From: Gammaproteobacteria bacterium
Lineage (GTDB): Bacteria > Pseudomonadota > Gammaproteobacteria > UBA5861
DNA length: 64,000 nt
Assembly: GCA_022360445.1 (NCBI GenBank)
Contig: JAKSCV010000068.1
Span: 124,001-188,000 of the forward strand
Reading direction: 5' to 3'
Below, piece after piece: positions 35,624-46,461 of this stretch. Position 1 is the first letter of the stretch; the number at the start of each line of letters is the position of its first letter. The notes beneath the pieces are model-generated. The model ran no database searches and was not told where the DNA came from. It was given only the letters and a program-made list of their open reading frames with translations. The position numbers and the translations under genes are program-made.

Positions 35624-38104
35624 GTGGTTAATGTTTCTTTAGCAAGACTAGCAGCTATCTGTATTTTTTCTATCGCTCTGGTGGCCTGCGGTGGTGGAGG
35701 TGGTTCCAATAAATCGCCAGAAGATAAAGAAGAACCAGTGATTACACTGACGGGAGAAGCTGTTATTAATCTCCACCAGGGCGATACATTCACAGACCCC
35801 GGTGCTACAGCAATAGATGACATTGATGGCAGTGTCGATGTTACGGTTTCAGGCGCAGTGGACAGCACAACCATTGGAACCTACATCCTCACGTATACAG
35901 CGGTTGATGCGGCTGGCAATAGCAGTTCGACAACACGGACAGTTAATGTTGTGGATGTTTCTGTTGATGTTGTTGCGCCAGTGTTAACGCTTAATGGAGA
36001 GACAACGATTAGCGTGCACCAGGGCGATAACTTCACGGATCCCGGCGCTACAGCCGTGGATGATGTGGATGGCGTGGTTAATGTCGATGTATCGGGCTCT
36101 GTTGATACGGATACGATAGGCAGTTATACCCTTGTTTATGCCGCAGTTGATGCGGCTGGAAATATTACCACGGCATTACGTACGGTTAATGTCGTTGATC
36201 CCTCGGCTGATATTACCCCGCCTGCTATCACACTGAATGGTGAGGAAGAGGTGACCATTAATGAAGGCGACAGTTTCACAGACCCCGGCGCGACAGCCGT
36301 TGATAATGTAGATGGGAGTGTTAATTTAAGCGTATCGGGTTCGGTCAACTCGAACACGCCGGGCACTTATACCATCACCTATACGGCTGTTGACTTGGCC
36401 GGTAATGAAGCGACTGCCATCCGAACAGTTTACGTGCTGGATATTACCCCGCCTGTTATCACTTTGAGTGGTGATCCTGTTATCACAACCGCTTATGGTC
36501 AAACATTCACAGACCCCGGCGCGACAGCCGTTGATAATGTGGACTCATCCGTTATTGTGAACGCCACCGGTTCTGTAGACACCAACACGGTTGGCACATA
36601 CACCATTGAGTATAACGCTATAGATACGGCGGGCAATATAGCGACAACAGTCTCAAGAACAGTCCATGTTGCTGATTTAATTGCTCCTGTCATCACTCTC
36701 AATGGCGATTCAACACTTACAGTTGCCTTGGGTGCTACATTCACTGACCCAGGAGCCACAGCGGTTGATGATATTGACGGTACAATCGCCGTGACGGTCA
36801 CCGGCACAGTCGATACCAATACGGCCGGTACTTATACTTTAACGTACACTGCGACAGATGCCGCAGGCAATACCGCAACAGTAACACGCACAGTCAATGT
36901 CGCCGATGTGACGCCACCAACGATTACCTTGAACGGTAGTGCAATAATGGATATCAATCAGGGCGACACATTTACCGATCCTGGCGCTTCCGCGACTGAT
37001 AATGTGGATGGTAATGTAGCCGTTACCACAACGGGCTCTGTTGATATCAATACAGTTGGAACTTATACACTGACCTATCAGGCTGAGGATGCTGCAGGTA
37101 ATGAAAGCACCGAAACACGAACCGTCAATGTTTTGGACATTACCCCGCCAGTGATCACATTGAATGGTGATAACCCAATCAACTTATTTGTGAGTGAAAC
37201 CTTTAATGATCCCGGCGCCACGGCTATTGACGATGTTGACGGCAACCTCACAGTAACTGTGGGAGGGGATACCGTCGATACATCAACTTCTGGAACTTAT
37301 ATTGTTACTTACTCAGCTACGGATTCCGCGGGTAATAGTGATTCAATCACTCGTACAGTGTACGTTGATAAACAAACGCAGCTGAATGATACCGGCATGA
37401 GTTGGGGAGGGAACTACCCGAAAGGAAACAATGCAGATTGCAGTGGCCAGACCGTTTCGGCACAAGACTGCTCACATGGTCGCGATGCTGAAGCGGCAGC
37501 CAGCACGTTAACAAAAGAGGGTGGGGGTGTTGCAGGCTTTGACTTCACCAAATTGGATGCAAATGGCAACCCGCTGGCAGATCAGAACGCTAACTATTCA
37601 ACAACACCTTGGAGTTGTGTCAAAGATAACCATACAGGGCTGATCTGGGAAATAAAAACGAATACGGTCAGCCTGCATAACAAGGATGATAAATTTAATT
37701 GGTATAACACCGATAGCACAAGCAATGGTGGGATCTCTGGCCACGAAAATAACAATGGTAACGTGTGCTATGGCTATTCTGCAGGCGATTCGAACACGTA
37801 TTGCAACACCCAAGCATTTGTTAACAGAGTCAATGCGGAGAATAGCGGAGTTGGCTATTGTGGCCTTAATGACTGGCGGCTTCCTACACGAGATGAGTTA
37901 CGCAGTATTGTCAATTACAGCCAGTCATCACCCGCGATTGATATTGACTACTTTCCAACAGTAGCCTCAGCCTTTTATTGGTCTTATTCCTCATACGCCC
38001 AGGAGAGTACAAAGGCTTGGGGAGTCGGTTTTAACTACGGTGGCGATAACAAATACGCCCATGACCAGACCTATCGCGTGCTACTGGTTCATGAAAGTGA
38101 CTAA
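35624..38104 (+). CDS. Surface lipoprotein with seven Ig-like (DUF5011) repeats and a C-terminal DUF1566 domain
   Basis: 826 residues. A lipoprotein signal (SIALVAC, then GGGGGS) is followed by seven tandem repeats of about 77 residues, each carrying ITLNG, FTDPGATA, DGxxxVTVxGxVDT and GTYTLTYTAxDAAGN. This is the DUF5011/HYR-like pattern of extracellular adhesin stalks. The last 170 residues are a DUF1566 (Lcl) domain with GLIWE, GLNDWRLPTRDELRSI and YRVLLVHESD. The start is GTG, with GGGAG six bases upstream. A surface adhesion or matrix role is inferred from architecture; no enzymatic function is seen. Confidence 0.82.
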   Translation: MVNVSLARLAAICIFSIALVACGGGGGSNKSPEDKEEPVITLTGEAVINLHQGDTFTDPGATAIDDIDGSVDVTVSGAVDSTTIGTYILTYTAVDAAGNSSSTTRTVNVVDVSVDVVAPVLTLNGETTISVHQGDNFTDPGATAVDDVDGVVNVDVSGSVDTDTIGSYTLVYAAVDAAGNITTALRTVNVVDPSADITPPAITLNGEEEVTINEGDSFTDPGATAVDNVDGSVNLSVSGSVNSNTPGTYTITYTAVDLAGNEATAIRTVYVLDITPPVITLSGDPVITTAYGQTFTDPGATAVDNVDSSVIVNATGSVDTNTVGTYTIEYNAIDTAGNIATTVSRTVHVADLIAPVITLNGDSTLTVALGATFTDPGATAVDDIDGTIAVTVTGTVDTNTAGTYTLTYTATDAAGNTATVTRTVNVADVTPPTITLNGSAIMDINQGDTFTDPGASATDNVDGNVAVTTTGSVDINTVGTYTLTYQAEDAAGNESTETRTVNVLDITPPVITLNGDNPINLFVSETFNDPGATAIDDVDGNLTVTVGGDTVDTSTSGTYIVTYSATDSAGNSDSITRTVYVDKQTQLNDTGMSWGGNYPKGNNADCSGQTVSAQDCSHGRDAEAAASTLTKEGGGVAGFDFTKLDANGNPLADQNANYSTTPWSCVKDNHTGLIWEIKTNTVSLHNKDDKFNWYNTDSTSNGGISGHENNNGNVCYGYSAGDSNTYCNTQAFVNRVNAENSGVGYCGLNDWRLPTRDELRSIVNYSQSSPAIDIDYFPTVASAFYWSYSSYAQESTKAWGVGFNYGGDNKYAHDQTYRVLLVHESD
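35731..37368 (+). repeat. Seven tandem coding repeats (DUF5011-like)
   Basis: Seven diverged repeat units of about 230 bp. Units 3 and 4 share an identical 35-base stretch (36275-36309 and 36506-36540) that other units do not match as well, which points to recent exchange between those two. Confidence 0.85.
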
Positions 38105-38908: not shown

Positions 38909-41251
38909 CTAGCCATGGAGATTGGCTGTACTACCCAAGGCGATCTTCCAAGGACCAATGGGCGTCCGTGACATTTTAATCGGGGAACCCAGTGCGATGT
39001 GATGATTGCGGCTATGAGTGACCATTCCCCGAGCGAGCGTATGGGGGTGGTCCAGTGCTTCCTCTGCCGTCAAAATGGGTGCCGCAGGTACGCCTGCTTT
39101 TAATAGTGTCATCACCAGGCTATCCCGATCTTTGTCCGCTAGTCGTGTTTCAATAATTGCGCCAAGCTCTTCGGGGTGTTTGATTCGATGAGCCGACTGT
39201 GAAAAACGAGAGTCGGATGCGAGTTCAGGCATGTCCAACACATCAGACAGCGTTCGAAATTGTTTATCGTTGGCAACCAATAACATGATGGTCCCGTTTT
39301 TTGTTTCGTAGAAGTCATAAGGCACAGCATTAGGGTGCTTGTTGCCGAGACGGCGAGGCTCGACACCGGCAATTAACCAGTCAGGACCAAAAGGGTTTTG
39401 CAAAGTCAGCGTTGCATCCAGCTGAGCACACTGCACTGTTTGGCCTTGTTGGGATGTGTGTCGTGCATAAAGTGCGAGCAAGGCACCGATGGCTATCATC
39501 AAACCGGTGGCCGTAGATGAGAGTGGGTTGGGAATCAATAAAGGTGCGCCCTGGGGATCACCATTCAGCGCCATCATGCCAGTGAATGCTTGTAAAACAC
39601 CTTCATCACCGGGGGCGTTGACCAAGGGGCCGGTGTGACCAAAGGGACTGATTGTAGAGCGGATGAGTTTGGGGTAATGTGTTTTTAAAAAGTCATCGTC
39701 CATTCCCCAGTTGGAACACAGCTGTGTTGTCTCATCTTCAAAAAAAATATCTGCGTATTCCAGGAGTGCGCGCAACTGCGTACGGTCAGCAGATCTATTT
39801 TTACTAAGACGCACCCTGTCGTTATCGCTTTGAGCTATTCTAGTTAAGGGATCATCGTGATTTTTTGTATTCCCGGTTAGCTCGACCGAAATAACATGAG
39901 CATCCAGATCACGCAGAATCCGGGTGGCCAATGCACCACTGAGGTGTGATGTGCAATTCGCAACACAAAGGCCGTCGAGTGCTTTTTTTGAGGCTCTTTT
40001 GGATTGTTGCATATGCTTGTGCCTTTGAGGCGTAATCACTTCATCACAAGAAGTCGCTTTTTCACCAAAAATGATGTTTGTTTGGAATAATGTACGTATT
40101 TCGTCATCAGAGTAATCAAGACTGCGCAACACTTCGCCATTATGTTCGCCAAGCAATGGTGGCAGCAATTTAAGGCGCCCGGGTGTACGGCTAAGCTTGA
40201 TTGGTAGGCCAATGGCTTTAAAGTGCTTTCCCTGCTTTAAAATCATCTTTCTTTCGGTGACTTGGGGGTGGTCAAACACTTCGGGTACTGTTTGCACGGC
40301 AGAAACAGGCACACCAGCAGCCAGTAGCTGATCAGAAATGTGTCGAGGAGGATAACCTGAAAGCGCAGTTGTCAAGGCGGCAGTTAATGCCGAACGGTTT
40401 TTAATACGCAATTCTTCAGTGCTGAATCGAGCCTCCTCGAGCAACTGGGTACACGACAGAACTTTGCAGCATTGTTCAAACTGGTGGTTGCAAAAATGCC
40501 CTGCGAAAAAATAGCCTTCTTCTGTTTTGATCAGTGTGTGAGGGGAATAGGCCAGGTCATCATTGCCTGTTCTTTTGGGAGGTATTTTGTTGATCAGCCA
40601 GTTAATATTGTGGGGGTACAAAAGGCTGATGGCAGTGTCCATTAAGGAAACCTCGATAAGTTGTCCCAAACCAGAGTGAACACGTTCCTCCAATGCAGCG
40701 AGTACGCCGGTCGCCGCGTAGAGCCCGGTGATAAGATCTGCTTGTGGAATGGGGATGCGGATGGGGTTTCCACCCTTTTCCCCGTTGAGGCTGATTAAGC
40801 CCCCGAACGCTTGGCCAATACCATCATAACCTGGGAGCCCACCGAGTGGACCTGTTGCGCCAAATCCGGTAATACGGCAGTGAATAAGGTGAGGGAAACG
40901 ATTCGCTAAGGTGTCTTGATAACCCATCCCCCACTTTTCTAATGTGCCAGGTTTGAAGTTTTCAATCAAAATATCCGCGTTTGCGAGCAGCTTGAATAAG
41001 ATTTCTTTCCCGAGCTTGGTGGATAAATCCATCGCCATGCCCCGTTTGTTCCGATTCATGCCAATAAACTGAGGATTGGTTTGCTGAACCAATGGTCCCA
41101 TGCGGCGTGTTTCATCACCATTGGGCGGCTCGATCTTGATGACATCAGCACCGTGATCACCGAGTATTTGCCCCACAGACGGCGCCGCTGCGACTGTGGA
41201 CAGATCAATCACATTAAGTCCATCTAATGAAGATGAGCCTATCTCCTCCAT
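38909..41251 (-). CDS. Tandem-fused family III (CaiB/BaiF) CoA-transferase
   Basis: Normal family III CoA-transferases are about 400 residues; this 780-residue protein holds two copies head to tail. The N-terminal half (about 8-395) is canonical, with GLNVIDLST, ENFKPGTLEKWG, GYDGIGQAFGGL and the expected catalytic Asp205 in EVSLMDTA. The C-terminal half (about 420-780) keeps FGHTGP, GDEGVLQAFTGMMALNG and a matching Asp612 (AQLDATL), but its first nucleotide-binding segment is degraded. Either both sites work or the second is structural. It should move CoA between organic acids; the acyl pair is unknown. Start supported by GGTGGAG upstream. Confidence 0.85.
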   Translation of the reverse strand: MEEIGSSSLDGLNVIDLSTVAAAPSVGQILGDHGADVIKIEPPNGDETRRMGPLVQQTNPQFIGMNRNKRGMAMDLSTKLGKEILFKLLANADILIENFKPGTLEKWGMGYQDTLANRFPHLIHCRITGFGATGPLGGLPGYDGIGQAFGGLISLNGEKGGNPIRIPIPQADLITGLYAATGVLAALEERVHSGLGQLIEVSLMDTAISLLYPHNINWLINKIPPKRTGNDDLAYSPHTLIKTEEGYFFAGHFCNHQFEQCCKVLSCTQLLEEARFSTEELRIKNRSALTAALTTALSGYPPRHISDQLLAAGVPVSAVQTVPEVFDHPQVTERKMILKQGKHFKAIGLPIKLSRTPGRLKLLPPLLGEHNGEVLRSLDYSDDEIRTLFQTNIIFGEKATSCDEVITPQRHKHMQQSKRASKKALDGLCVANCTSHLSGALATRILRDLDAHVISVELTGNTKNHDDPLTRIAQSDNDRVRLSKNRSADRTQLRALLEYADIFFEDETTQLCSNWGMDDDFLKTHYPKLIRSTISPFGHTGPLVNAPGDEGVLQAFTGMMALNGDPQGAPLLIPNPLSSTATGLMIAIGALLALYARHTSQQGQTVQCAQLDATLTLQNPFGPDWLIAGVEPRRLGNKHPNAVPYDFYETKNGTIMLLVANDKQFRTLSDVLDMPELASDSRFSQSAHRIKHPEELGAIIETRLADKDRDSLVMTLLKAGVPAAPILTAEEALDHPHTLARGMVTHSRNHHIALGSPIKMSRTPIGPWKIALGSTANLHG

Positions 41252-41326
41252 CCTGACTCCACCTTATCGGTTTATGATGAATGTATCTTTTTGGAATCAG
41301 TCAGGCAAGTAAGAGCGTTCGAGGCA

Positions 41327-42220
41327 TCATGTTAGAGGATATCGAGACAATACATAAGCCAGCGCGAGAGGAATGGATATGATGGTCAAAGCGTTGCCGA
41401 TAATGACAATAGAGGCGACTTTTGTCGGTTCTTGATTGTAACGTTCGGCAAAAATAAAGTTGAGGACAGCCGGGGGTAATGCGCCAAACAGAATAAGCAT
41501 GGCTTCCTGCTGGGGATTTAGGTCAAAAACTGCGATGGATAAAAAGGCCAATAGCAACCCAGATAATGGTGTGAGCACGGCGGCAATCAGACCAATCCGC
41601 CATTCGCTTAAGTCGGCATCCGCTAGTCGGACACCCAGTGAAAACAGCATTAAAGGGATACAGATTTGGCCGAGCATTTCAATGGGTAACAGCACCGGTT
41701 TAGGTGGGCTCCAGCCAATCAGGTTAGCCGCAAGCGCAGCCAGGGTACAGAGCATTAAAGGTGTTATAAATACGCTTCTAATTTTTGCCTGACGATTAAG
41801 CAGATACGTACCCAATAGGAAATGAATACCGGTTTCCACCATAAATAAAAGTGCAGCGGCGGGAAGGGCTGACTGACCAAAAGCCAGTGCAAAAAGTGGA
41901 AGCCCCATGTTGCCCGAATTCGTGAACATGATCGGAGGCAGGAGGGTTTTGGGATGAATGTTCACGATTTTGCATATTGGGTAACTGATGACGCCAGAAA
42001 AAATGACAATGCCTGCTGCCGCAAGCACCAGCATAGTGTAATCGCCTAATTCAAAAGAGTGACCTACAATCACAGAAAACATCAGTGCGGGTGCAAAGAT
42101 ATCTATGTTCAGTGTGTTTGCCACAGACATGTCGAATTTGAAGCGCCAACCGACCAATAATCCCAAGCCTACGATGGAAAAAATTGGAAAAATAATTTCA
42201 ACAATGCGAAGTGCTAACAT
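41327..42220 (-). CDS. AEC (auxin efflux carrier) family transporter
   Basis: A 297-residue integral membrane protein with about ten hydrophobic helices in two sets of five and the family's central SGNMGLPLFALAFG motif (TNSGNMG). AEC proteins export or import dicarboxylates and other organic anions. The ATG at 42220 is preferred over a TTG two codons earlier. It lies 75 bases upstream of the CoA-transferase gene on the same strand, so it may move the acid activated by that enzyme; this is inference. Confidence 0.85.
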   Translation of the reverse strand: MLALRIVEIIFPIFSIVGLGLLVGWRFKFDMSVANTLNIDIFAPALMFSVIVGHSFELGDYTMLVLAAAGIVIFSGVISYPICKIVNIHPKTLLPPIMFTNSGNMGLPLFALAFGQSALPAAALLFMVETGIHFLLGTYLLNRQAKIRSVFITPLMLCTLAALAANLIGWSPPKPVLLPIEMLGQICIPLMLFSLGVRLADADLSEWRIGLIAAVLTPLSGLLLAFLSIAVFDLNPQQEAMLILFGALPPAVLNFIFAERYNQEPTKVASIVIIGNALTIISIPLALAYVLSRYPLT

Positions 42221-42664
42221 AATCAAATATGCCTGAAACCATTGAGCACCAAAGGGTACAACGGATCAAAAGTTGACGCCCAAGGCTAATAAAACTGGCA
42301 ATTGGTTAAAACCTTGATATTATCAAGAAACGGACCGCGCTTACTTTTATCTTGCACGCTTACATGTGAATGACCTGAGTTGGTAGCCATAACACCACGT
42401 TAACGGCTTAAAATGGCGTGTTGGTCTTTCCCTTCTCACATACAGTGAGTTGGTCTTTAACGTTAAATTTCTTTTAAATCTCGTATATTGAATTGAAATA
42501 TTCATTGTCAGAATTGAATTGTGTTAGGCAGTCAACAATTTGGTTCCAGAAAGTGTGAACCGTCTAAGACGATTCACATATCTATATCCGTATGATTTGC
42601 CCCAGTTTCCTGAAGGGCCCCGCTCTTTATTAAGTATCTTTTCTTAAGAGGCCAGTGAATTTAA
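42221..42664. other. Divergent intergenic region rich in dyads (AEC transporter / GH13 phosphorylase)
   Basis: No gene is seen in these 444 bases. It contains CTTGATA-T-TATCAAG (42313-42327, perfect), a 23-nt near-palindrome at 42555-42577, and a direct repeat GTTGGTCTTT at 42420-42429 and 42449-42458. AT-rich sequence with TATATTG and TTGAATTG segments precedes the phosphorylase gene. Promoters are likely for both directions, but I cannot place them firmly. Confidence 0.5.
42555..42577. promoter_or_regulatory. 23-nt near-perfect inverted repeat upstream of the phosphorylase gene
   Basis: GTGAACCGTCT, a single central A, then AGACGATTCAC; ten of eleven positions pair. It sits 88 bases before the ATG. 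It could be a symmetric operator or a leader hairpin. No regulator gene lies nearby. Confidence 0.4.
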
Positions 42665-44428
42665 ATGACTGACGAAAACAAATTACCCTACGCATTTTAC
42701 TCGGTCGCTGAGGCGCGCCTTGAGCGTCTTTATGGCCCGGAGCAAACGCCTGAAGTAATGAAAATGCTCAGCGATTTGATTAACGATTATTGCTCGAGCG
42801 ACGATGCACCCAAACCTCAGGAAAAGTGGACAGAAAAAGATACTATTTTGATCACCTATGGCGGTAGTATTTTTGATAAAGCTGAAACACATCACCTGAA
42901 AACGCTGCATAAATTTTTATCTCAATATTTACGGGGAGTGGTGAATACTGTCCATATTCTACCCTTTTTCCCGTTTAGTTCAGATGATGGGTTTTCCGTC
43001 ATTGACTATCTCACCGTCGATCCAGCCTTGGGAGACTGGGAGGACATCCATGCGCTCTGTACAGAGTTTAATTTGATGATTGACTTCGTCGTCAACCATA
43101 TTTCCAGAGAAAGCTTATGGTTTGTTGAGTATTTAAATAACAAGTCACCGGGGCGTGACTTTTTTATTGAAGTTTCCCCTGATGAAGATTTGTCCAAGGT
43201 TGTCAGGCCCCGACCCCATGACTTGGCCGTCCCGGTCCATACTCACCGAGGCTTAAAGCACTTATGGGCCACCTTCAGTGAGGATCAAATTGATTTAAAC
43301 TTTCGCAACCCGGTTGTGCTTCTGACGTTTATTAAAATTATGCTGGAGTACATTCGTCATGGGGCTCGGTTTATCCGCCTGGATGCGATCGCGTTCTTGT
43401 GGAAACAGATCGGGACAAGCTGTATTCATTTAAGCGGAACACATGAAGTGGTCAAACTATTCCGGGATATTGTTGACCTAGTCGCGCCTGAAGTTGTATT
43501 AATTACCGAAACCAATGTGCCAAATGGTGAAAACATCAGTTATTTTGGTAACAGTGATGAAGCCCATATGGTGTACCAATTCAGCCTGCCGCCCATGTTA
43601 CTACATGCGCTATTCCGTGGTGATGCGGAACATCTAACACAGTGGGCGCTTGACTACCCAAGGCCACCGAAAGGCTGTACTTATCTTAATTTTACGGCCT
43701 CACATGACGGCATTGGCTTACGGCCGCTGGAAGGTATTTTGGCCGAGGAAGAAATCGATAACCTGGTTTCCAGCATGCGGCAGTATGGTGGTTACGTGAG
43801 TATGCGCAAAGCCGCAGATGGGCATGAAGTACCATATGAAATCAATATCACGTATTTTGATGCGCTCAAAGGGACCGCATTAGGTATCGATCAGTGGCAA
43901 ACCCCTCGGTTTATTTGTTCTCAAACCGTTTGTCTTTCAATTCAGGGAATCCCGGCTCTTTATATTCATTCATTGCTGGCGACACCGAATGATACCCATG
44001 GCGTAGAGCAAACGGGTCGAACGCGATCGATCAATCGTTCTTCTTTGGATTATGAGGAAGTGACCAGCTTGCTGGAAAGTCCTGAAATCCCTCATGCCAT
44101 TGTTTTTTCAGAACTAAAACGGCGAATAAAAATTCGAGGGAAGCAGATTGCCTTTCATCCAGAAAGTGATCAAAAAACCATTGATTTGGGTCACTCGTTT
44201 TTTGCCTTGTGGCGGTTTTGTGATCGACAGAAAATACTGGCAATTCACAATGTGACCAATCAGTTTCAAACAGTCACCTTACCTAAGGAAAGACCGACCC
44301 ATAAGAAAGTGACCGGGTGGACTGATTTATTGCAGGATAAGTACTACTCATCCCGTATTCGGGAAATATCCCTGAAGCCCTATCAGTCCGTTTGGCTAGA
44401 GCTTCAAGAATCTCATTTGCGTTATTGA
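42665..44428 (+). CDS. GH13 sucrose-phosphorylase-like enzyme, probably glucosylglycerate phosphorylase
   Basis: 587 residues of GH13 subfamily 18 type. VNTVHILPFFPFSSDDGFSVIDY and DFVVNHIS are at the N-terminus. The nucleophile Asp lies in RFIRLDAIAFLWK, the acid/base Glu in VLITETNVPN, and the transition-state Asp in FTASHDGIGLRPLEG. Members cleave alpha-glucosides with phosphate, yielding glucose-1-phosphate. It converges on gpgS and its phosphatase, overlapping gpgS by seven bases at the 3' ends. Phosphorolysis of glucosylglycerate is therefore the best guess, with sucrose or glucosylglycerol as alternatives. The ribosome-binding site is weak. Confidence 0.85.
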   Translation: MTDENKLPYAFYSVAEARLERLYGPEQTPEVMKMLSDLINDYCSSDDAPKPQEKWTEKDTILITYGGSIFDKAETHHLKTLHKFLSQYLRGVVNTVHILPFFPFSSDDGFSVIDYLTVDPALGDWEDIHALCTEFNLMIDFVVNHISRESLWFVEYLNNKSPGRDFFIEVSPDEDLSKVVRPRPHDLAVPVHTHRGLKHLWATFSEDQIDLNFRNPVVLLTFIKIMLEYIRHGARFIRLDAIAFLWKQIGTSCIHLSGTHEVVKLFRDIVDLVAPEVVLITETNVPNGENISYFGNSDEAHMVYQFSLPPMLLHALFRGDAEHLTQWALDYPRPPKGCTYLNFTASHDGIGLRPLEGILAEEEIDNLVSSMRQYGGYVSMRKAADGHEVPYEINITYFDALKGTALGIDQWQTPRFICSQTVCLSIQGIPALYIHSLLATPNDTHGVEQTGRTRSINRSSLDYEEVTSLLESPEIPHAIVFSELKRRIKIRGKQIAFHPESDQKTIDLGHSFFALWRFCDRQKILAIHNVTNQFQTVTLPKERPTHKKVTGWTDLLQDKYYSSRIREISLKPYQSVWLELQESHLRY

Positions 44429-45633
44429 CTGTCTTCCTCAACAGCCTCGTAGATGTCTTTAAGAATATTCGGAATCGCGTTTACGACGCGGTTCCAGTTA
44501 TGGATAAAGGGGGTTTCCATCGGGTTGCTGATGAATGAGTCTCCGGCCTTGATGATATTTTCAGAAAATAATTCGATGGCCTTTTCTTCTGAATGTCTGT
44601 CAAAAGGCAGCCCGTTGATAACAGCATCCGCGTAATAAGATTCCACCAAGTCCAGCGCTATCCGGTAATAAGTCGCTTTCAATGTTCGAAAGGTGCCGCT
44701 ATTGAACGTCATGCCTGCTGTTGCCAATTTGCGGAACATTGCCTTGGAAATGTCTGTACTCATTTTGGATAGCCCTTTGTCAGGATTATCCGCAGAGACA
44801 GGCTGATGCTTATGATCATAAACATCGGCAATGTCGACTTGACATAAATGGTTATGGGAATAGTTACGATTCACTTCGGAAAGTACACCAATTTCCAAAC
44901 CCCAGTCACTTGGTATGCGGATGTCCTTGATCACATCTGCACGCATGGAAAACTCCCCCGCAAGCGGGTAGCGGAAACTGTCCAGGTATTGCAGATAATC
45001 CAAGGGTCCAAACATGTTACGCAGTGCACGAATCAACGGTGTTACCAATAACCGTGAGACCCGGCCACTGAGTCCCTTGCTGGAGATGCGCGCATAATAA
45101 CCTTTGCAAAATTCGTAACTGAAATGTGGGTTCGCAACGGGGTAGATCAGGCGAGCGAGTAAATCCCGCTGGTAAGTCACAATGTCACAATCGTGCAAAG
45201 CAATGGCCTCGGCTTTGCCAGAGGCCAAAATATAGCCATAACAGTACCAGACATTCCGCCCTTTGCCCTCATTGAGGGGGGCGAGCCCTTCGCGTTTTAA
45301 TGTCGCATCAATTTCACGCAGGCGGGGGCCGTCATTCCAGAGGATGCGATGGTGCTGTGGTAAGCGCGAAAAGTATTTCTTGGCGTATTCAAACTCTTCC
45401 TTACTGGCAACATCCAGGCCGATGACAATTTCTTCAAGATAAGGGACTTTGCAGAGTTCGTTGACAATATTGTCCAAAGCCGGCGCCTGAAGCTCAGAAA
45501 AGAGCGAGGGTAAAACCAGAGACATGGGACGCTGCTTTGAAAACTGCAAAAGCTCTTCTTCAAGAGCCTCGATAGGGCGTCGATTAAGGTTGTGAAACGT
45601 GGTAATAACGCCATTCTGGAAAAAATCTCCCAT
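44422..45633 (-). CDS. gpgS: Glucosyl-3-phosphoglycerate synthase
   Basis: Retaining glycosyltransferase (GT81-type) that joins an NDP-glucose to 3-phosphoglycerate, the first step to the compatible solute glucosylglycerate. 403 residues with LVLPSLFSE, the DxD metal motif DCD at 148-150 (ALHDCDIVTY), NEGKGRNVWYCYGY and GEFSMRADV. It starts after AAGGAAG eight bases upstream and only three bases beyond the stop of the phosphatase gene, so the two are an operon. The sugar could be mannose (mannosyl-3-phosphoglycerate), but the closest features are of GpgS. Confidence 0.9.
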   Translation of the reverse strand: MGDFFQNGVITTFHNLNRRPIEALEEELLQFSKQRPMSLVLPSLFSELQAPALDNIVNELCKVPYLEEIVIGLDVASKEEFEYAKKYFSRLPQHHRILWNDGPRLREIDATLKREGLAPLNEGKGRNVWYCYGYILASGKAEAIALHDCDIVTYQRDLLARLIYPVANPHFSYEFCKGYYARISSKGLSGRVSRLLVTPLIRALRNMFGPLDYLQYLDSFRYPLAGEFSMRADVIKDIRIPSDWGLEIGVLSEVNRNYSHNHLCQVDIADVYDHKHQPVSADNPDKGLSKMSTDISKAMFRKLATAGMTFNSGTFRTLKATYYRIALDLVESYYADAVINGLPFDRHSEEKAIELFSENIIKAGDSFISNPMETPFIHNWNRVVNAIPNILKDIYEAVEEDSQ

Positions 45634-45636
45634 GGG

Positions 45637-46461
45637 TTAAGCTTCCTTTTGGTCATATTGTTTCAAAATTTGTAAAATGGCCTGATTCCAGCCCTCTGGG
45701 CCGATTTTGTCAGTATAAAGAATGGATTGCTCTGTCTCGACGATAGGCGGCTCGCTTTTAGTTGACTTGATAACCACTGGAATATCAACACATTCCAGCA
45801 TGCCCTGATCATTGGGTGCATCGCCCAGTGCCACTGTGACCAAAGTTCTCGCTTGATAGAAAGTTCGATATTTTTCTATGAGAAGGCTGACACCTGTGGC
45901 CTTATCCGTTTGGCCCATGACATGATAAAAACGGCCACCTTTTAGTAATCTCAACCCCGCACTGTGTAGAGTTTGACGGAAGTTTATTAAATTTTCATCA
46001 CTGTCCTGCCATGTCAAAGGCTCCGAGGAGACACGCATCGAAGCCCGTTTTGCAGCGTCTAAGGAAAGGCCGGTGAGTGCGGCCAGTTCTTGAGCGGAGA
46101 GTTCGGCAAAAGAAGTGAATTGATAGTCTTTTTTTAACTTAATTCCCTGCAGTGTGGCTAAAATCTCTTGTCTGTCTGAGCCGAGTAGCTGCATGTTGTT
46201 TGGCTGATGGCTTTGAGGCATTTTAGGGAAATAACCCCGAGGGATGTAAACAGCGCCACCGTTTTCGACTACGAAGGGGTGCGTATTACCCAGGTCATCC
46301 CGTAATTGTTCCATTTCAGCTGCTGTTTTGCTGGAGTTAAGAATCAAGGGGATTTGCCTGGCTCGAAGTTCACCAACGGCTTCTCGTGCAGCTGCCCACG
46401 AATAATTATCATGGTCCAAAAGAGTTCCATCCAAGTCCGTAAAAATAATAAGTTGATTCAT
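45637..46461 (-). CDS. Mannosyl-/glucosyl-3-phosphoglycerate phosphatase (HAD family)
   Basis: 274-residue Cof/MPGP-type HAD hydrolase with the DxD nucleophile motif in IIFTDLDGTLLDHDN, a cap domain with VVENGGAVYIPRGYFP, LLKGGRFYHVMG and the metal-binding VALGDAPND. It should remove the phosphate from glucosyl-3-phosphoglycerate to give glucosylglycerate. It leads the two-gene operon with gpgS, and the enzymes act in sequence. MPGP-family proteins act on both mannosyl and glucosyl substrates. Confidence 0.88.
   Translation of the reverse strand: MNQLIIFTDLDGTLLDHDNYSWAAAREAVGELRARQIPLILNSSKTAAEMEQLRDDLGNTHPFVVENGGAVYIPRGYFPKMPQSHQPNNMQLLGSDRQEILATLQGIKLKKDYQFTSFAELSAQELAALTGLSLDAAKRASMRVSSEPLTWQDSDENLINFRQTLHSAGLRLLKGGRFYHVMGQTDKATGVSLLIEKYRTFYQARTLVTVALGDAPNDQGMLECVDIPVVIKSTKSEPPIVETEQSILYTDKIGPEGWNQAILQILKQYDQKEA

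What the first reader, a model, noticed from the sequence alone, without database searches (positions are those of the whole stretch)
38909..41251. Double-length CaiB/BaiF CoA-transferase with two fused modules
Two family III CoA-transferase modules are in one 780-residue chain. Both keep the Asp expected at the active site, but the second has a degraded first Rossmann segment. Family III enzymes are normally interlocked homodimers, so a fusion could make an intramolecular pseudo-dimer.
Basis: partly seen in the sequence, partly recalled or inferred. Interest (0 to 1): 0.5.

Follow-up and report, generated by a model that had tools for sequence, protein, structure and literature searches.

The report
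Fused CoA-transferase with one pseudo-half
This bacterial gene joins two copies of an enzyme that normally works as a pair of interlinked twins, and the second copy has lost its catalytic residue but apparently still supplies structure and a loop to the first, so it looks like a two-in-one enzyme with a single working site.

Summary
The 780-residue ORF is real and holds two complete-length CoA_transf_3 (PF02515) modules. An 89% identical 780-residue orthologue sits in the only other genome of its genus that was held, so it is no artefact. Module 2 is therefore a pseudo-module. Its first Rossmann segment evolves almost neutrally, while its small-domain half is normal and conserved. In YfdE the Asp and the GNxH His of one active site come from different subunits. 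Here Asp172 (module 1) and the GNKH His639 (module 2) survive; the reciprocal pair is Ser579 plus Asp232. Best reading: a single-chain pseudo-dimer with one working composite site, born by lineage-specific duplication and fusion of a gene like the own-genome paralogue L002. Two-domain family III CoA-transferases (DddD, PtmU4) and one-Asp heterodimers (BbsEF) are known, so this is a variant, not a new kind. It is unusual in keeping the Asp in the first module (2 of 11 fused proteins examined). Interlocking was not shown: the full-length model was poor.

The parts
38909..41251 (-). two-module family III (CaiB/BaiF) CoA-transferase, 780 aa
   Evidence: ORF; PF02515 two stretches, 591 bits; orthologue 89% identical
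40070..41233 (-). module 1, residues 7-394: intact large (Rossmann) domain with nucleophile, small domain, tail
   Evidence: profile match 426 bits; large domain scores like ordinary one-domain enzymes, 33 of 87 lower
39992..40069 (-). linker, residues 395-420
   Evidence: between profile matches; 73% identical to orthologue against 89% overall
38951..39991 (-). module 2, residues 421-767: pseudo-module with degraded first Rossmann segment, normal small-domain half, lost C-terminal tail
   Evidence: profile match 275.8 bits; large domain lowest of 87, small half 42 of 87 lower, tail 3 of 87 lower; isolated model pLDDT 78, large part like AMACR/CaiB chains
40736..40738 (-). Asp172, predicted covalent nucleophile (equals FRC Asp169, YfdE Asp173)
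   Evidence: 86 of 87 one-domain rows have D here
39515..39517 (-). Ser579, at the nucleophile position of module 2
   Evidence: also Ser in the orthologue
39335..39346 (-). GNKH loop, residues 636-639 (His639 equals YfdE His233)
   Evidence: kept in both genomes
40556..40567 (-). GNDD, residues 229-232: GNxH loop of module 1 with His lost (orthologue GNDH)
40637..40639 (-).
   Evidence: 59 D, 19 E of 87
39416..39418 (-).
41327..42226 (-). auxin-efflux-carrier (Mem_trans) permease, upstream on the same strand, 75 bp away; kept next to the fusion in the orthologous genome
   Evidence: PF03547; L022 and L096 ORFs
41257..41265 (-). ribosome-binding-site-like AAGGTGGAG before the ATG
   Evidence: read from sequence

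Best explanation
A single-chain pseudo-dimer of a family III CoA-transferase with one working active site. SHOWN: module 1 keeps the catalytic Asp (172) and a normal large domain; module 2 has Ser (579) there, a degraded first Rossmann segment and no C-terminal tail, but a normal, constrained small-domain half with the GNxH loop (His639). INFERRED from the YfdE dimer: the two modules take the places of the two subunits, and the one working site is composite, with Asp172 and CoA binding from the large domain of module 1 and the GNxH loop from the small domain of module 2. The reciprocal site (Ser579 plus the module 1 loop) is dead and free to decay. Chemistry (inferred from the family): Asp172 attacks an acyl-CoA, forms an aspartyl anhydride and then an aspartyl-CoA thioester, and passes CoA to a second carboxylate. 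The substrate is unknown; the co-directional permease suggests a carboxylate taken up from outside. Origin: duplication of a gene like the own-genome one-domain paralogue, then fusion.
For: Asp column 86 D and 1 F of 87 one-domain rows; window D/S, orthologue D/S. GNxH column: window D in module 1, H in module 2; orthologue H and H. YfdE Asp173 and His233 come from different subunits in each site, and UctC D177A (YfdE Asp173) is inactive (PMC3720670, passages). Region scores: module 1 large 1.77 (33 of 87 lower), module 2 large 0.50 (0 of 87), module 2 small 1.46 (42 of 87). dN/dS against the orthologue: module 1 large 0.08, module 1 small 0.31, module 2 residues 421-515 0.65, 516-620 0.13, module 2 small 0.18; working halves 13 nonsynonymous to 37 synonymous changes, dead halves 42 to 37, Fisher p 0.003 (halves chosen after seeing the residues). 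Tree: both modules and L002/L038 form one clade, 95/91. Solved BbsEF has the same division: chain 9fn0_A aligns Tyr, chain 9fn0_B Asp, at this column; PtmU4 has the Asp only in one domain and loses 125-400-fold activity when it is mutated (PMC6006322 section 9).
Against: No confident model of the whole chain: pLDDT 59.4, pTM 0.47. The isolated module 2 model matches whole family III chains only at 16-18 A rmsd over about 280-305 residues, so its two domains are placed otherwise than in the crystals, though the large part alone fits at 2.7-3.0 A over 205-209 residues. Module 1's small half is not strongly degraded (18 of 87 lower), small-half contrasts alone are not significant (module 1 versus module 2 small, p 0.49; module 1 large versus small, p 0.06), and the module 1 His is lost only in this genome, not in the orthologue. 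Residues 516-620 of module 2, which include Ser579, are conserved (0.13). The complementary rule does not hold in the other fused proteins: L112 has both Asp and GNxH His in its second module. No activity is known.
Confidence: 0.66

Rival explanations
1. The fused chain itself dimerises: module 1 interlocks with module 1 of a second chain as an ordinary homodimer with two active sites, and module 2 hangs on as a side domain or pairs with the other module 2.
For: Module 1 alone looks like a complete one-domain enzyme, tail included, and its small half is only mildly unusual; in the orthologue module 1 keeps both Asp and GNxH His.
Against: Module 1 of the window has lost the GNxH His; module 2's small half with His639 is as conserved as in active enzymes, which a bystander would not need.
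Confidence: 0.2
2. Module 2 is a decaying leftover of a tandem duplication with no function.
For: Lost nucleophile, degraded first Rossmann segment with dN/dS near 0.65 (0.90 for residues 421-480), lost tail.
Against: Open reading frame kept in both genomes; module 2 residues 516-620 and 632-740 evolve under constraint (dN/dS 0.13 and 0.18).
Confidence: 0.07
3. Module 2 has a changed chemistry of its own (Ser579 as nucleophile) or serves as a regulatory acyl-CoA sensor, so the chain has two different sites.
For: Ser579 and its surroundings are conserved in both genomes.
Against: The first Rossmann segment next to that site, where the family binds CoA, is among the fastest evolving parts of the protein; Ser is not known to replace the Asp in this family (recalled; FRC Asp169 to Ser exists as a mutant structure, 1t3z, title).
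Confidence: 0.07

Closest known systems
[quoted passage not shown]
   Same: two tandem modules in one chain with a poorly conserved linker; PtmU4 has its conserved Asp in one domain only (PMC6006322 section 9; DddD two CaiB domains, PMC7174347 passages)
   Different: PtmU4 and 8 of 11 fused proteins classified here keep the Asp in the second domain; the window keeps it in the first and its modules fall in another clade
BbsEF benzylsuccinate CoA-transferase (9fn0, 9fol)
   Same: one Asp-bearing and one Asp-less partner
   Different: two separate chains; its sequences were not placed in the trees
YfdE, acetyl-CoA:oxalate CoA-transferase
   Same: best solved match; GNxH loop; next to an AEC-type permease gene in E. 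coli (yfdV)
   Different: one-domain symmetric homodimer with two sites; the two permeases share only short weak matches
own-genome one-domain paralogue L002
   Same: 57% identical over module 1 residues 6-219, in one clade with both modules
   Different: one module, with Asp and the loop His both present

Membership tests
Family III CoA-transferase (CaiB/BaiF, PF02515) | family profile match | tested here: met
   PF02515, 591.4 bits, two stretches
Family III CoA-transferase (CaiB/BaiF, PF02515) | catalytic Asp in every module | tested here: not met
   Asp172 in module 1, Ser579 in module 2; met for module 1 alone
Family III CoA-transferase (CaiB/BaiF, PF02515) | interlocked dimer | tested here: inconclusive
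   full-length model too poor, pLDDT 59.4, pTM 0.47
[quoted passage not shown]
[quoted passage not shown]
[quoted passage not shown]
   window modules group with one-domain L002/L038, the other N- and C-modules elsewhere; authentic DddD and PtmU4 sequences were not in the tree
[quoted passage not shown]
   needs enzyme assay
YfdE-type acetyl-CoA:oxalate CoA-transferase | GNxH loop opposite the Asp | tested here: met
   GNKH in module 2; in module 1 GNDD (window) or GNDH (orthologue)
YfdE-type acetyl-CoA:oxalate CoA-transferase | oxalate as acceptor | not testable with these tools
   needs enzyme assay
One-Asp heterodimer (BbsEF) | one Asp-bearing and one Asp-less partner | tested here: met
One-Asp heterodimer (BbsEF) | two separate chains | tested here: not met
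   one ORF

The most novel reading that the evidence does not exclude
A genus-level newcomer that shows how a symmetric interlocked homodimer becomes an asymmetric single chain: after duplication and fusion the two modules lost opposite parts, so the only active site is made of the first module's large domain and the second module's small-domain loop. Fused family III enzymes would then have arisen at least three times (this one, a mycobacterial one, and the older group of two-domain proteins), usually ending with one nucleophile per pair.
Probability: 0.5. Interest if true: 0.5.

Novelty: new variant of a known kind. Interest (0 to 1): 0.36.

Why it matters
If right, it is a clean natural test of subunit sharing in interlocked CoA-transferases: residues of one active site sit in two modules of one chain that can be mutated one at a time, which a homodimer does not allow. 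It also suggests that one nucleophile per pair is a repeated outcome (10 of 11 fused proteins and 4 of 9 adjacent gene pairs looked at), which should caution against annotating each CaiB module as an active enzyme.

Tried and rejected
Artefact or frameshift joining two genes: rejected, the same 780-aa frame is in a second genome. Asp205/Asp612 as nucleophiles: rejected. 'The window is the only fused protein with the Asp in its first module': I held this after and dropped it when a Mycolicibacterium plasmid protein (L172, D then G) turned up. Complementary loss as a general rule of fused proteins: not supported (L112, L099). Descent from the DddD/PtmU4-like group: not supported by the trees, though no authentic DddD or PtmU4 sequence was in hand. 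Branching order of module 1, module 2 and L002 is unresolved (holding the two modules together: p-AU 0.16). The 97-row tree is a quick one; its careful search did not finish. A typed degenerate DNA pattern searched over 369 genomes was ill chosen and told nothing. Plasmid tblastn with the whole protein gave 1223 records; all 40 listed places span only about 1.05-1.22 kb of the record, the size of a one-domain gene. Full-length folding failed for want of rows over module 2: single-domain rows all land on module 1. Substrate from the neighbours of related one-domain genes: acyl-CoA dehydrogenases, a thiolase, family I CoA-transferase subunits; no single theme. The BbsEF structure paper was not found in the library; PDB titles and sequences only. 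In VIA-align a family not listed is not excluded.

Full report
What is there. The ORF at 38909-41251 (minus strand) codes for 780 residues and carries two PF02515 stretches. A profile built from 87 one-domain family rows places the modules at residues 7-394 (426 bits) and 421-767 (276 bits), with a linker of about 26 residues. The modules are 33% identical. An RBS-like AAGGTGGAG precedes the ATG. A co-directional AEC-type permease (PF03547) lies 75 bp upstream.

Not an artefact. The window's genome has 22 PF02515 matches, of which only the window's gene is double. The only same-genus genome held has the same 780-residue fusion, 89% identical, with the permease beside it; it is also in a named record (L051, DJFX01000003.1, Halothiobacillaceae bacterium UBA5861). 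In 369 genomes of the class searched with module 2, only these two carry the fused orthologue; the remaining rows are 38% identical or less.

The nucleophile. Aligned with E. coli FRC, YfdE and CaiB, FRC Asp169 falls on Asp172 of module 1 and on Ser579 of module 2, in both genomes. The column is D in 86 of 87 one-domain rows. So module 2 cannot do the family's covalent chemistry in the usual way.

Which parts are kept. By mean profile score (regions set by me in YfdE numbering, not by the paper's own domain borders), module 1's large part is ordinary (33 of 87 rows lower) and its small-domain half low-normal (18 of 87). Module 2's large part is below all 87, its small half is ordinary (42 of 87), its tail almost gone (3 of 87). 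Of 50 strongly conserved large-part columns module 1 keeps 46, module 2 keeps 29. Against the orthologue, dN/dS is 0.08 for module 1's large part, 0.31 for its small half, 0.65 for module 2 residues 421-515, 0.13 for 516-620 and 0.18 for module 2's small half. Working halves against dead halves: 13:37 versus 42:37, p 0.003, but most of this comes from the degraded Rossmann segment; the contrast between the two small halves alone is not significant (p 0.49).

Why this points to a composite site. In YfdE each active site takes Asp173 from one subunit and His233 of the GNxH loop from the other; [quoted passage not shown] The window keeps Asp172 in module 1 and GNKH (His639) in module 2; the opposite pair is Ser579 with GNDD. 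In the orthologue the module 1 loop is still GNDH, so that loss is recent and rests on one comparison.

Structure. AlphaFold2 on the whole chain, with 9 rows of which only two cover module 2, gave pLDDT 59.4 and pTM 0.47: no statement on interlocking is possible. Module 2 alone, with 21 rows, gave pLDDT 78.1 and pTM 0.78. Family III chains head its matches, YfdE first at Z 21.9; the large part fits AMACR and CaiB chains at 2.7-3.0 A over 205-209 residues, while matches over the whole module have 16-18 A rmsd, meaning the small domain is placed otherwise in the isolated model. So the pseudo-module probably still folds.

Where it comes from. In the quick 97-row tree and the careful 33-row tree, module 1, module 2 and the one-domain paralogue present in both genomes (L002/L038) form one clade (91; 95/91), inside an 11-row clade (100). 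Branch order inside is unresolved; module 2 has a long branch. Modules of other fused proteins group elsewhere; those of the older group fall with N-modules apart from C-modules, the two mycobacterial ones fall together. This argues for a local duplication and fusion, independent of the older two-domain group.

Other fused and paired genes. I classified 11 different fused proteins (orthologue not counted): the Asp is in the second module only in 8 (L036, L099, L112, L167, L168, L169, L170, L176), in the first only in 2 (window, and L172 from a Mycolicibacterium plasmid), in both in 1 (L129). L036 is a partial match to the profile. Of 9 adjacent gene pairs, 4 have an Asp-less first gene (L100, L155, L165, L174) and 5 have Asp in both (L007, L166, L171, L173, L175). 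The sample is not random: the plasmid loci were 12 picked from the 30 rows listed. The two genes of pair L165 are nearest relatives of the two halves of fused L099, and those of pair L100 lie close by, so fused and split forms interchange. In the solved heterodimer BbsEF the Asp column is Tyr in chain A and Asp in chain B. In fused L112, Asp and GNxH His are in the same module, against a general complementary rule.

What is known. [quoted passage not shown] A search for 'type III CoA-transferase' with 'two-domain' found only that paper; the listings of other searches showed no title or abstract start that describes a fused member with the Asp in its first module. That DddD's own nucleophile is Asp602 in its second half is recalled, not read.

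Verdict. A real, conserved, functional-looking fusion of known parts; a one-site pseudo-dimer is the likeliest mechanism (0.66). New variant of a known kind, moderate interest.

Noticed in passing
window 35624-38104 (+): A surface-type protein with many repeats (by reading), 826 aa here; its counterpart in the sister genome is 540 aa (L096 15220-16842) with Ig-like repeats and an Lcl_C end (Pfam), which suggests loss or gain of repeats. The window copy itself was not scanned.
   Followed up: partly
L093 774-3248 (G001:C44): The sister genome has a second fused CaiB protein, 824 aa, with Asp in both modules; no match at E 1e-60 in the window's genome.
   Followed up: partly
L097 7649-10878 (G000:C47): A CofC-like gene and a double radical-SAM gene with a CofH_C domain, i.e. 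likely coenzyme F420 biosynthesis, beside the paralogue L002.
   Followed up: no
L097 2203-5022: A 938-aa protein with a hydrazine-synthase-alpha-like middle domain and a doubled CXXCH motif.
   Followed up: no
G000 whole genome: 22 PF02515 matches in 3.46 Mb, a large number, several close together.
   Followed up: partly
L036 37-2286: A fused CaiB-type frame with a Tat-like leader in its first half (by reading); one half lacks the Rossmann start, the other lacks the small domain, and only the second has the Asp.
   Followed up: partly
window 42665-46461: An alpha-amylase-family gene (PF00128) followed by two genes that look like glucosyl-glycerate synthesis (by reading the translations; recalled likeness, not searched).
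   Followed up: no
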